DNA from: Paenibacillus antibioticophila
GTDB taxonomy: Bacteria; Bacillota; Bacilli; Paenibacillales; Paenibacillaceae
Direction: 5' to 3'
Assembly: GCF_000455265.1 (NCBI RefSeq)
Contig: NZ_HG005139.1
Span: 2,573,480 to 2,637,479, forward strand
Length of the DNA: 64,000 bases
The position numbers were made by a program, and so were the translations under genes. Below the pieces are notes generated by a model. It was not told where the DNA came from. It was given only the letters and a program-made list of their open reading frames with translations, and searched no databases. Below, piece after piece: positions 8,597 through 56,681 of the stretch (the stretch's first letter is position 1; each line of letters starts with the position of its first letter).

Positions 8597-8764
8597 GACG
8601 GTAATTCCTCCACCTTGTTATGGACAAAGTCTAATATAGCCTTTATTTTACACTTGTTCCACCAGCTTGACCAGCCGTAAGTCAGTTTCCATTCAAAATG
8701 GCAAAAAATCGTGCAAGTGCGCAGCAGTATAAAACAGCTGACGTTTCTGCGTTCCGGGGGTAAC

Positions 8765-8881
8765 GTGTAAAGGTTGCTTACGATCGCTGTTGTTCGCGGA
8801 TTCCTTGGATTGAACTAAGCCTCAAAAGGTAGAAATCCACTCGCAAAGGCGACCGCTTCGCTTCTGCAGCAACCTTCACAC
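8765..8881 (+). repeat. Terminal hairpin module 1 of repeat copy A
   Basis: Outer arms GTGTAAAGGTTGCT (8765-8778) and AGCAACCTTCACAC (8868-8881) pair with one mismatch. An inner stem is formed by TCGCGGATT and AAATCCACTCG. Between the outer and inner arms lies the conserved TACGATCGCTGTTG. The module is the inverse of the one at 9653-9771. Confidence 0.85.
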
Positions 8882-9652
8882 TTATACCCTTATTACGCAG
8901 GCTCGTGAGCTCGGCATTATATGTGCCGAATGCATGATAGTAGCCCACATGCTCGAATCCCTTGACATGTACCACCGACTCGTTCTTCCGGCATTTGAGG
9001 TGCCGGATAACACCGATGCAATACAAACAGTAACTGCGAATCATTGCACCTTTCAGCGGATAGGTGCATGGACAACTACCCACACAAGGACTATCCCCGG
9101 CAGATTCTGCAAAATAGCAACAAAGTACCGTCTACGCACACACACCTCGCATCATGCAGATCTCACACTGCGCAAAGCTCCCAATAATGTACGGTGCTTT
9201 ACAGCATGACGACGATTGGCAGACCCCATGCATATACGGATCACACACATGCAGTGAAAAAAGTTACTCTAAATATAGGTGAAATGGTGGGAATGCGGAT
9301 ATAGTGAAATTTTTTCGCTTAAAGTTGACTAAAACGTGGATTTGGCTAGTTACTGGCGATCTAAGGTAAGTTTTTTCACTAAAATTGGGTTCGAGCGTCG
9401 AATGAAGAATTTAAGGTAAGAAATTTCACTGGAGCATGATGGAATGAGACAGGAAAAGCGGGATGGGTGAAGCTCGGAACAAGACTGGAATGCGTAGTCA
9501 AATAACGAAGTTCCGCGTTCTGCGTAAGGCCGAGGCAACGTGCGACTGGCCGTAACTTCAGGCGGCCAGCTTACTGTAATGCGACATGTGAGCGCAGGCA
9601 CGTGCAAACTGCACTGTAGTTGAACTTTAAAGGCGAAGTAATCAGGGCATAA

Positions 9653-9771
9653 GTATGAGGTGTGCTGTAGAAGCGTTAGCGGTCGCCTTTGTAAGCGGAT
9701 TTCCCCCCTGTGATAACTTGGTCCAATTAAAGAAATCCGCGAACAACAGCGATCGTAAGCATACCTCATAC
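9653..9771 (-). repeat. Terminal hairpin module 2 of repeat copy A
   Basis: Outer arms GTATGAGGTGTGCT (9653-9666) and AGCATACCTCATAC (9758-9771) pair with one G-U wobble. Inner arms are AAGCGGATTTC and GAAATCCGCG, and CAACAGCGATCGTA is conserved, so the module is reversed relative to module 1. Relative to the other modules the arms carry paired substitutions (TGAAGG/CCTTCA becomes ATGAGG/CCTCAT), so pairing is kept while sequence changes. Confidence 0.85.
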
Positions 9772-9874
9772 GTTGCCCATCCAACTCGCCATCTAATGTT
9801 CAACTGTTTTCTGCTGCTGCACATTTTGCCGCTTAAATGCCGTAGTCGGAATGCTTGTTGCAGTGCAGCCCTAA

Positions 9875-9920
9875 CAAAACAGGGCCTCCCGCCAGATCAA
9901 GTCTGTTGGGACAGCCCTTT
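9875..9920 (-). terminator. Terminator of the 9940-10353 gene
   Basis: On the minus strand AAGGGCTGTCCC pairs with GGGAGGCCCT across a ~17-base loop and is followed by GTTTTG. It lies about 20 bases beyond the stop codon of the membrane protein gene and just outside the repeat element. Confidence 0.65.
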
Positions 9921-12760: not shown

Positions 12761-12799
12761 TCATAAAAAATCATTAATGATATAGGTGGTTGCAGTGAA

Positions 12800-13215
12800 G
12801 AAAGTTTGCCGTAAGCCGGGTTCTGTACTCTTGGCGGTAATCACGGGAACAACCCTCCCGCTTGGAGTGACAATCATCTATCTAGGCCGTACATTACTGG
12901 ACGGCTCCAGCGACCAACCCGGACGCGCCTCGGGCAAAGGCTGCTTCACGAAGGAAGCTGCGTCCCATTAGGTCTTGCTCCAGATGGGGTTTACCAGGAA
13001 CGAAGTCACCAGCGTTCCTCGGGGTCTCTTACACCTCGGTTCCATCCTTGCCTGATCCGCAATTGCTTGCGGCCATCGGCGGTCCATTTCTGTGGCACTA
13101 TCCTTCGGCTCGCGCCGACTGGACGTTATCCAGCACCCTGCCCTATGGAGCCCGGACTTTCCTCCCGCGGCAACAAGGCCGCCGGCGATTGTCTGTCAAA
13201 CTTTCAATAGCAACA
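12800..13215 (-). ncRNA. rnpB: RNase P RNA (rnpB), apparently ancestral A type
   Basis: On the minus strand the universal blocks are present in order: GAGGAAAGTCCGGGCTCC, AGGGCAGGGTGCTGGATAA, AGTGCCACAGAAA, ACCGCCGATGG, GGTAAACCCCATC, GGAGCAAGACC, GCCTAGATAGATGAT and the 3' ACAGAACCCGGCTTA. The ends GAAAGTTTG and CAAACTTTC pair as P1. Several blocks, notably the P4 neighbourhood and the ACAGAACCCGG end, match the E. coli-like A architecture better than the B architecture of Bacillus. The RNA makes the catalytic subunit of RNase P, which matures tRNA 5' ends. The 5' end is placed from the promoter and is good to a few bases. Confidence 0.93.
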
Positions 13216-40063: not shown

Positions 40064-40253
40064 GAAGCTGCCTCCCTTGTAGTGACGGTGTACCTGCCCG
40101 TTCGTTTTTCTAACTGTAAATCAGTATAACATACCTTCATCGGATAGGAATATACGTTCCCTCTTTCTACAAGCTGTCATTGCTGCGTACTTGCAGGAAA
40201 ATGTGCAACAGCGGAATATAGCTAGAACATTGGAGGCGAGTTAGAGGGGCAAC

Positions 40254-40372
40254 GTGTGAAGTGTGCTTACGATCGCTGTTGTTCGCGGATTTTTATGATT
40301 GGACCAAGTTCTGGCAAGGGAGAAATCCGCTCTCAAAGGCGAACGCTGACGCTTCTACAGCACACTTCACAC
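40254..40372 (+). repeat. Terminal hairpin module of repeat copy B (addB side)
   Basis: Outer arms GTGTGAAGTGTGCT (40254-40267) and AGCACACTTCACAC (40359-40372) pair perfectly; inner arms are TCGCGGATTT and GAAATCCGC. It matches the 9653-9771 module of copy A but has a different, still fully paired, outer arm. Confidence 0.85.
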
Positions 40373-41295
40373 TTATGCCCTGACTACTTCGCCTTTGCTG
40401 TTCAACTGATACGCAGTTTGCACGTGCCTGCGCCACAGTTGCATTACAGTAAGCTTGCAGCCTGTGGCATGCAAGTAGGATACTCCGCGCGCCAATAGCC
40501 CCCTCCTAACTTCACTTTACTGCCAGCCCCGCCTTAGATTAGGCATCGCGAATGGAAGCCTGCGCGATTCACTTTATGCACAGTCCAATGGAACACCGGC
40601 GCCTGGAGTTGCGTCCAGTCATACGTTGCTTCAACCTTGAGCGGAACGCGGATCTTCGTTATCCGACTGGGCATTCCATTCTTGCTCCGAACTTTACTCG
40701 TCCTACTTGATCAGCCTAATTCCGGTCATGCTCCAGTGAAATTACTTACCTTAAATTTACCATTCGACGCTCAAACCCACTTTTAGTGAAAAAACTTACC
40801 TTAGATTGCCAGTCATTAGCCAAACCCACGTTTTAGTCAACTTTAAGTACAAAAATTTCACTATATTCGCATTTCTATCATTTCCACTAAATTTAGAGTA
40901 ACTTTTTTCACTATATGTGTGTGATCTGTATTTGCATGGGGTCTGCCAACCGTCGTCATGCTGTGAAGTTCCGTACGTTGGAGCTTGGCGCAGTGTGAGA
41001 TCTGCATGATGCGAGGTGTGTGCGTATACGTACTTTGTTGCCATTTTACAGAATCTGCTGGGAATAGTTCTGTGGGTAGTTGTCCATGAACCTACCCCCG
41101 CTGAAGGTGAAATGATTCGCAGTTACTGTTTGTATTGCACCGGCGTCTAGGCACTTCAAATGCCGGATGAACGAGCCGGTAGGTACATGTCGAGGGATTC
41201 GAATGCTAGTCACCGCATGGGCGGCATTGTTAGCTATTAAAGTGCATTCGGCACATACAAAGCCGAACTAAAGAATCTGCGTTAAAAGGGTATAA

Positions 41296-41450
41296 GTGTG
41301 AAGGTTGCTGCAGTAAAGCTTTCAGAAAGAAAGCTACATCGGGAGCATACGCTCGGAGTGGTCGCCTTTGCGAGTGGATTTCTTCCTTGTCAGAACTTAT
41401 TACAATAAGAGAAATCCGCGAGCAACAGCGATCGTAAGCAACCTTCACAC
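41296..41450 (-). repeat. Terminal hairpin module of repeat copy B (rlmI side)
   Basis: Outer arms GTGTGAAGGTTGCT (41296-41309) and AGCAACCTTCACAC (41437-41450) pair perfectly over 14 bp. Inner arms are GAGTGGATTTC and GAAATCCGCG. It corresponds to the 8765-8881 module but has about 38 extra loop bases, including AGCTTTCAGAAAGAAAGCT, itself a small hairpin. Confidence 0.85.
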
Positions 41451-41528
41451 GTTACCCCCGGAACGCAGAAGCAATCTTTAGATGGTTTTATACTGCTGCA
41501 CGCTTGCACGAAACTAGCGGCGAATGGA

Positions 41529-56125: not shown

Positions 56126-56404
56126 CTTATTCCCTCCTTAATGACTGCAAATTCATGTCTGTGTCCAGCCGAAAGTCCGATATAGCGCGAAGAGGGTGTC
56201 CCAAAAGCAAGCTTTGGAACACCCACGCCAATAGAATAGGATGGTCATTTTCTTCATCATCATAACCCGTATCGGCGATGACGATTTTGGACAGCTTGCC
56301 CGGCTGTGATTTTACATTTCACTATAGTAAGCGGGCGTCATGACTTCTTACTATAGCTATTTCGCGCACTTAAAATGGCTTCATTTAGGTGCGAGTGTTC
56401 ACGC

Positions 56405-56556
56405 GACGAAACAAGTGCCAAAAAGCAATTAGATTACTGAACTGGGAGCTCTCACGGCGAAACAAGTGCCGAAAAGCAATTAAATTGCTGAATTGAGAGC
56501 TCATACGACGAAACAAGTGCTGAAAAGCAATTAAATTGCTGAATTGAGAGCTCATG
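56405..56556. repeat. 51-bp tandem direct repeat, three units
   Basis: Three adjacent units begin near 56405, 56456 and 56507. The landmark CGAAACAAGTGC recurs at 56407, 56458 and 56509, exactly 51 bases apart. Each unit also contains AAAGCAATTA..TTGCTGAA, in which AGCAATT-A-AATTGCT is a perfect palindrome in units 2 and 3, and GAGAGCTC. There are no spacers, so it is not a CRISPR array. It lies in the 556-bp gap between hemW and lepA, which holds no gene I can support. Confidence 0.9.
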
Positions 56557-56559
56557 CGC

Positions 56560-56640
56560 CCTTTTGAGCGGCTTGCTCCCTTGTCAGAACTTAGTCGAAT
56601 CAGAGAAATCCGCTAGCAACAGTGATCATAAGACGCAGCA
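56560..56640. repeat. Solitary, degraded module of the large repeat element
   Basis: GCTCCCTTGTCAGAACTTA, then GAGAAATCCGC and AGCAACAGTGATCATAAG, follow the 41380-41437 part of repeat copy B (CTTCCTTGTCAGAACTTA, GAGAAATCCGCG, AGCAACAGCGATCGTAAG). Only one arm is left; the outer stem and core are absent. Confidence 0.75.
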
Positions 56641-56681
56641 TCATTAACAAGGACTCTGGGACAGCCTCTAAGTCGAACCTG

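What the first reader, a model, noticed from the sequence alone, without database searches (positions are those of the whole stretch)
8710..9836. Two large non-coding repeat elements in inverted orientation, bounded by hairpin modules
The gene-free gaps at 8.6-9.9 kb and 40.1-41.6 kb carry the same ~1.1-1.3 kb sequence, copy B being the reverse complement of copy A. Many long blocks match, yet substitutions are scattered throughout, and copy B has ~140 extra bases. Each copy has facing ~120-155-nt hairpin modules at its ends and conserved, end-specific outer tips (GTGCrGCAGTATAAAAC on one side, GCACATTTT on the other). No transposase or other protein is inside. It could be a non-autonomous mobile element with long inverted ends, a large structured RNA family, or a chromosome-organising repeat. 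I know of no described element with this layout.
Basis: partly seen in the sequence, partly recalled or inferred. Interest (0 to 1): 0.8.

Follow-up and report, generated by a model that had tools for sequence, protein, structure and literature searches.

The report
Composite repeat built from miniature transposons
The two matching gene-free stretches belong to a family of about 40 related non-coding repeats scattered over this Paenibacillus genome, put together from two kinds of miniature transposon and usually lying with the same end towards the tail of a neighbouring gene; it is a known type of thing in an unusually large and ordered form.

Summary
A (8709-9836, +) and B (40198-41511, -) align along their length at ~80%. 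They are 2 of 43 loci of one family found in this genome: 40 by similarity to A, 3 more via the core motif. Of the 40, 25-26 have left module, core and right module. Relatives occur in Paenibacillus brevis; 25 of the 40 sites are occupied in both species. No Rfam family matches credibly.

The hairpin modules are diverged copies of a ~200-bp MITE that also occurs alone, with 16-bp inverted ends common in the genus. The best conserved central 178 bp carries four copies of AGTGAAAnnnnTTACCTTAnAT; it also occurs alone and is limited to this species pair among 39 genomes.

Unexpected: the element's right end faces the neighbouring gene's 3' end in 31 of 35 callable sites and in 5 of 5 held-out copies.

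Best reading: a non-autonomous composite MITE once spread by a transposase in trans, now mostly fixed and decaying. No transposase was found. Hairpin pairing is kept without RNA-like G-U preference; the core shows no covariation.

The parts
8709..9836 (+). Copy A, whole composite element (outer limits approximate)
   Evidence: Alignment to B and to other family members
8707..8745 (+). Left outer tip of A; imperfect inverted repeat of the right tip
   Evidence: Local alignment of the two tips
8736..8902 (+). Left hairpin module of A (diverged MITE-1)
   Evidence: Module profile hit, 168.9 bits (the profile was built from A and B); the same profile hits 19 of 19 solo MITE-1 copies
9253..9430 (+). 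Core unit of A (MITE-2-like), four motif arms at 9253-9274, 9303-9324, 9359-9380, 9409-9430
   Evidence: Motif scan, conservation in 47 core copies, solo occurrences
9631..9800 (-). Right hairpin module of A (diverged MITE-1, inverted)
   Evidence: Module profile hit, 177.6 bits
9790..9836 (+). Right outer tip of A
   Evidence: Right-end alignment, tip alignment
40198..41511 (-). Copy B, whole composite element, reverse orientation (outer limits approximate)
40227..40394 (+). Right hairpin module of B
   Evidence: Module profile hit, 178.3 bits
40735..40912 (-). Core unit of B; three of the four motif arms pass the scan
   Evidence: Motif scan
41277..41479 (-). Left hairpin module of B, with an extra ~37-nt internal segment
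   Evidence: Module profile hit, 164.0 bits; alignment
56553..56632 (-). Fragment of a hairpin module inside a ~480-bp segment (about 56195-56672) that is absent from P. brevis
   Evidence: Profile hit, 55.6 bits; alignment with L151

Best explanation
A and B are members of a dispersed, non-coding, composite repeat family. Each full member is [tip]-[MITE-1 hairpin]-[linker]-[MITE-2-like core]-[linker]-[MITE-1 hairpin, inverted]-[tip]. Inferred mechanism: MITE-1 copies, which carry the ends of a still unidentified insertion sequence, came to flank a stretch holding a second miniature element; the paired, inverted ends then let the whole piece be moved in trans by that insertion sequence's transposase in an ancestor of this species and P. 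brevis. Most copies now stay at their sites, lose their insides by deletions within the large inverted repeat, and at some sites carry a different subtype in the two species. Shown: the modular build, solo forms of both modules, dispersal, shared sites, deletion remnants, orientation bias. Inferred: the transposase in trans, movement as one unit, sequence exchange between copies.
For: 40 loci share the same module order at different sites; 25-26 of 40 hold left module, core and right module, 12 hold the core with one or both strong module hits missing, 2 lack the core (the 26th is L067, whose left module lies ~1.9 kb away). The A/B module profile hits 19 of 19 solo MITE-1 copies; these were picked for having both ends and are 196-201 bp (14) or 227-253 bp (5), 17 of 19 with both 16-bp ends perfect. 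The end motif TATATAAGTTGAACTA (up to 2 mismatches) occurs 105+105 times here against 5+3 for the reversed control. 12 of 19 solo MITE-1 sites give one continuous match in P. brevis (empty), 6 are filled in both, 1 unclear. Core units occur alone in L250, L251, L252. Site L070 holds a ~1.9-kb composite here and ~14 nt in P. brevis; L051, L064, L081 keep only ~50-80 nt there.
Against: No transposase with these ends was found: 20 stretches fetched at presumed unpaired ends (one mistyped, so 19 useful) showed MITE-sized pairs or no partner; the few longer spacings (0.56-1.5 kb) each enclose a MITE-sized pair. No target duplication was established for the composite, and for solo MITE-1 the empty junction read TA in 4, CA in 4 and was unclear in 4 of the 12 examined (read by eye). 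The L070 empty site differs by its terminator hairpin too, so insertion there cannot be told from loss. Transposition in trans does not by itself explain why the right end faces gene 3' ends in 31 of 35 sites.
Confidence: 0.72

Rival explanations
1. A host-useful DNA element at gene ends: a repeat of mobile origin kept because its core motifs bind a host protein and its hairpins stop, insulate or stabilise transcription coming from the gene at its right end.
For: Right end faces a gene's 3' end in 31 of 35 callable loci, tandem pairs 15 versus 2, left side unbiased at 16 versus 18 (p values); by ORF length alone 34 of 40 on the right and 17 versus 3 in tandem pairs; 5 of 5 held-out composites agree, one weakly. 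Core arms 0.91-0.98 conserved against 0.79 for the flanking alignment in 47 copies, without covariation. 25 of 40 sites occupied in both species.
Against: Many copies are truncated or reduced to remnants in P. brevis, which argues against strict need. Terminator-like structures between right gene and element were found in only 5 of 31, 0 of 31 with a stricter scanner. No protein is known to bind the motif. Biased insertion would give the same placement.
Confidence: 0.17
2. A large structured RNA family, transcribed as one molecule.
For: Hairpin modules keep pairing: compensatory cells exceed shuffles (60 vs 37 left, 80 vs 55 right, 135 vs 46 P. brevis, 34 vs 22 other species). RNAalifold finds paired structure on both strands (that script stopped with an error before the last group).
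Against: Core arms: 4 (outer) and 0 (inner) compensatory cells against 1.9 and 0.1 by shuffling. Hairpin mismatches are not biased to G-U on the strand counted (G-T vs A-C: 74 vs 98, 54 vs 69, 111 vs 180, 16 vs 20); the P. brevis excess of A-C would be G-U on the other strand, but shuffled columns show the same excess. The core G-U excess (80 vs 19) comes from a structure fitted to that strand. No credible Rfam match; promoter- and terminator-like hits at or below chance.
Confidence: 0.06
3. A retroelement-like insertion (for example a relative of terminator-targeting group IIC introns) placed in one orientation behind genes.
For: Orientation bias relative to gene 3' ends. That group IIC introns insert in this way is recalled, not taken from a call.
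Against: No credible Rfam match (that the library holds group II intron models is recalled); no reverse transcriptase inside; inverted-repeat ends; terminator-like structures in only 5 of 31 right flanks.
Confidence: 0.03

Closest known systems
Prokaryotic MITEs (review PMC10969869; abstract and sections 2, 3 and 4.2 read)
   Same: Non-coding, short inverted ends, hairpin-forming, mainly intergenic, many copies, thought to be moved in trans; the review reports QMITE2 mainly in 3' untranslated regions
   Different: The review gives a typical length under 500 bp; here the whole unit is mostly about 1.1-1.9 kb and contains two different MITE-like modules in fixed order
Pneumococcal BOX elements (PMC3049150; passages seen)
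   Same: Composite repeat: end modules boxA and boxC around a variable number of inner modules
   Different: No sequence relation was tested; here the ends are facing copies of one module that is itself a MITE
MITE-flanked integrons of Acinetobacter (as described in PMC10969869, section 4.2)
   Same: Two MITEs flank a longer piece and are thought to mobilise it
   Different: There the cargo is genes; here it is a non-coding repeat in dozens of loci
BIME / REP elements (PMC2817692 and PMC3733652; start of abstracts in a listing only)
   Same: Mosaic of palindromic units in alternating orientation between genes
   Different: REP units are 20-40 bp; here modules are ~170-200 bp with terminal inverted repeats

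Membership tests
MITE (solo hairpin module) | Short terminal inverted repeats | tested here: met
   16-bp ends, both perfect in 17 of 19 copies chosen for having both ends; 105+105 hits vs 5+3 control
MITE (solo hairpin module) | Insertion polymorphism / empty sites | tested here: met
   12 of 19 sites empty in P. brevis, 6 filled, 1 unclear
MITE (solo hairpin module) | Target-site duplication | tested here: inconclusive
   Junction dinucleotide TA 4, CA 4, unclear 4 of 12 (read by eye)
MITE (solo hairpin module) | Related autonomous insertion sequence | tested here: inconclusive
   None in 19 useful stretches; the rest of the genome was not scanned for transposases
Composite mobile element (A and B as a unit) | Same module order at many unrelated sites | tested here: met
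Composite mobile element (A and B as a unit) | Clean empty site with target duplication | tested here: inconclusive
   L070 absent in P. brevis, but the terminator there differs as well
Structured RNA family | Covariation with G-U tolerance on one strand | tested here: not met
   Hairpins show compensatory excess but no G-U preference; core arms show neither
Structured RNA family | Match to a described Rfam family | tested here: not met
Structured RNA family | Transcription | not testable with these tools
   No RNA-seq available
BOX-type composite repeat | Sequence homology to boxA/boxC | not tested
   Compared by architecture only

The most novel reading that the evidence does not exclude
A mobile composite whose insertion or retention is directional with respect to transcription: a protein binds the four-arm core and, through the paired inverted hairpins, docks the element behind genes with one fixed end towards the incoming RNA polymerase, so that a transposon family has become a genome-wide set of 3'-end boundary elements.
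Probability: 0.15. Interest if true: 0.72.

Novelty: new variant of a known kind. Interest (0 to 1): 0.45.

Why it matters
It shows how miniature transposons can stack into kilobase-sized, ordered non-coding units that occupy dozens of intergenic gaps and break draft assemblies (P. brevis contigs end inside the counterparts of A and B). The orientation bias towards gene 3' ends, seen again in held-out copies, is directly testable by RNA-seq and would tell targeting from selection. In eight full-text searches of the held open-access library the listed titles and abstract openings showed no description of this family; subscription papers and ISfinder were not searchable.

Tried and rejected
Structured RNA: Rfam, covariation and wobble tests; not supported. 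Phage or plasmid origin: no match in 50,697 phage records; in plasmids only weak hairpin-sized matches in two P. cellulosilyticus replicons; no viral contig with the exact 22-base core pattern. Replication-direction placement: A and B lie 31 kb apart in opposite orientation; no formal test was made. Insertion behind intrinsic terminators: 0 of 31 with my first scanner, 5 of 31 with an RNAfold-based one, and 6 of 16 on the left side, two of those being the module's own hairpin. Strict within-genome homogenisation: an own-genome copy was closer than the ortholog in 22 of 25 curated module pairs (11 by at least 0.05; 1 pair favoured the ortholog by at least 0.02), and the ortholog was the best hit for 1 of 41 modules and 3 of 7 cores; but these compare one ortholog with the best of dozens, one search does not keep left and right modules apart, gaps are ignored, and non-orthologous P. 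brevis copies are often as close. I therefore claim only that some sites carry different subtypes in the two species (L055/L123 and L077/L141).

Failed or partial runs: one search ended with an error before the last group; one search timed out and was replaced; the place lists were capped.

Full report
Check of the observation. A and B are inverted copies of one sequence: 79.4% identity over 926 columns and 84.8% over 270 columns. The window also holds a third, partial hairpin match at 56553-56632. Against the window's genome (5.58 Mb, 9 contigs) A gives 191 matches (part listed), which I grouped into 40 clusters. The core motif led to nine further places; three of them (L247, L248, L253) are composites with both modules and core. 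So 43 loci are known, not two. The ~134 nt that B seems to have extra are the common state; A lost them.

Anatomy. In the 40 loci the order of pieces is the same. Strong hits for left module, core and right module occur together in 26 loci by count, 25 if L067 is dropped because its left module lies ~1.9 kb away; 5 have left module and core, 3 core and right module, 4 the core alone, 2 no core. Some loci carry an additional internal module (for example L057, L070, L080, L083, L086). Left and right modules face each other. Outer tips align as imperfect inverted repeats.

The hairpin module is a MITE. Several solo copies in P. brevis end in CTATATAAGTTGAACTA...TAGTTCAACTTATATAG or close variants. 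In this genome the 16-base end occurs 105+105 times with up to two mismatches against 5+3 for the reversed control. Nineteen solo copies chosen for two ends are 196-201 bp (14) or 227-253 bp (5), and all 19 match a profile made from the A and B modules. With up to one mismatch the end is present in 27 of 39 genus genomes, reversed control 0-2 per strand. The module itself is found by BLAST in 31 of 35 other genus members searched and in 1 of 23 genomes of other genera. Joined flanks of the 19 solos gave one continuous match in P. brevis for 12, split (filled) matches for 6, and an unclear one for 1. At the 12 junctions examined, the extra dinucleotide read TA in 4, CA in 4, unclear in 4, so the target duplication is not settled.

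The core is a second MITE-like unit. Forty-seven core copies aligned show four arms at 0.949, 0.912, 0.977 and 0.921 identity to consensus, spacers at 0.86-0.90 and flanking columns at about 0.79. The arm motif occurs 74+75 times here against 0+1 reversed. In the window its 7 matches all lie in A or B. It stands alone, without a module in the fetched stretch, in L250, L251 and L252; weaker solo-like hits are in L249 and L255. Among 39 genus genomes only this one (149) and P. brevis (24) exceed 5 matches, the others staying near their controls. BLAST of the core found 2 of 40 genus genomes, this one included. An exact 22-base pattern in GTDB species genomes hit only P. brevis MSJ-6, 5 contigs whose lengths equal those of G059; records of the window's own genome may be left out there.

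DNA rather than RNA. Core arms vary no more in concert than shuffles. Hairpin modules do keep their pairing beyond shuffles in all four groups, but G-T mismatches do not exceed A-C mismatches. This fits palindromic DNA or a hairpin needed on either strand, and gives no support for a transcript-level structure. Promoter-like and terminator-like consensus hits are at or below shuffled expectation.

Position and turnover. Twenty-five of 40 sites share flanks with a P. brevis stretch that also holds at least part of the element, A and B among them; P. brevis contigs end inside both. Flanks there are mostly about 88-97% identical. At L055/L123 and L077/L141 the P. brevis site carries a shorter core subtype shared by those two P. 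brevis sites. Of 13 loci without a shared stretch, both flanks were found on one P. brevis contig for 8: the spacing is shorter in P. brevis for 7 and longer for 1 (L056). L070 has ~14 nt there, L051, L064 and L081 only ~50-80 nt of remnant, L062 about 334 nt with module pieces. Which state is older is not known.

Orientation. I called flanking genes twice. With open frames whose substitutions against P. brevis concentrate at third codon positions (35 right and 34 left flanks callable of 40), the right neighbour points at the element in 31 of 35 (p = 3.5e-6), the left one in 16 of 34 (p = 0.86); tandem pairs are 15 versus 2 (p = 0.0023). By longest frames alone the right side is 34 of 40 and tandem pairs 17 versus 3; the two callings disagree on the right neighbour of L065 and L082. 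Five composites not used before, three here and two in P. brevis, all agree, by frame length only; L248 is weak (a 95-aa frame 571 bp away). B is one of the exceptions, A follows the rule. Terminator-like structures lie between right gene and element in only 5 of 31, so targeting of intrinsic terminators is not shown. Targeted insertion and selection both remain possible.

Mechanism. I favour a non-autonomous composite moved in trans through MITE-1-type ends, because dispersed copies share one order, solo MITE-1 copies differ in presence between species, and the ends are inverted. The motor is missing: 19 useful stretches at presumed unpaired ends showed no larger element with paired ends (their open frames were not searched for transposases), and the genome was not scanned for transposase families. 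Confidence 0.72.

Known relatives. MITEs, BOX, BIMEs and MITE-flanked integrons share parts of the design (PMC10969869: abstract and sections 2, 3 and 4.2; PMC3049150: passages; PMC2817692 and PMC3733652: start of abstract in listings; PMC3012674 on P. vortex repeats: passages, which mention repeats at contig ends but, in what I saw, not this family). None combines facing MITE modules with a second MITE-like core at this size in what I saw.

Noticed in passing
window 12797-13204 (-): Bacterial RNase P RNA class A, 271.9 bits.
   Followed up: no
window about 56195-56672: A ~480-bp segment absent from P. brevis, starting with a GGTGTCCC hairpin, holding three direct repeats of about 58 nt (by eye) and a hairpin-module fragment; P. 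brevis has a plain terminator-like hairpin there.
   Followed up: partly
window 9880-9920 and right flanks of L053, L065, L066, L077: A similar hairpin sequence (AGGGCxTCCCGCCAGAxCAAGTCTGTTGGGA) recurs beside the right end of several copies; one match in the window. Whether it belongs to the element is open.
   Followed up: partly
L182-L197 (P. brevis empty sites): Empty MITE-1 sites show CA as often as TA at the junction (4 each of 12), odd for a simple TA duplication.
   Followed up: partly
L210 and L206 (P. brevis): Remnants in which the outer arms of left and right modules, or just the two tips, are fused and everything between is gone, as expected of deletion across a large inverted repeat.
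   Followed up: partly
L055 and L074: Left modules of two distant loci are identical over 157 bp although the P. brevis ortholog of L055 differs.
   Followed up: partly
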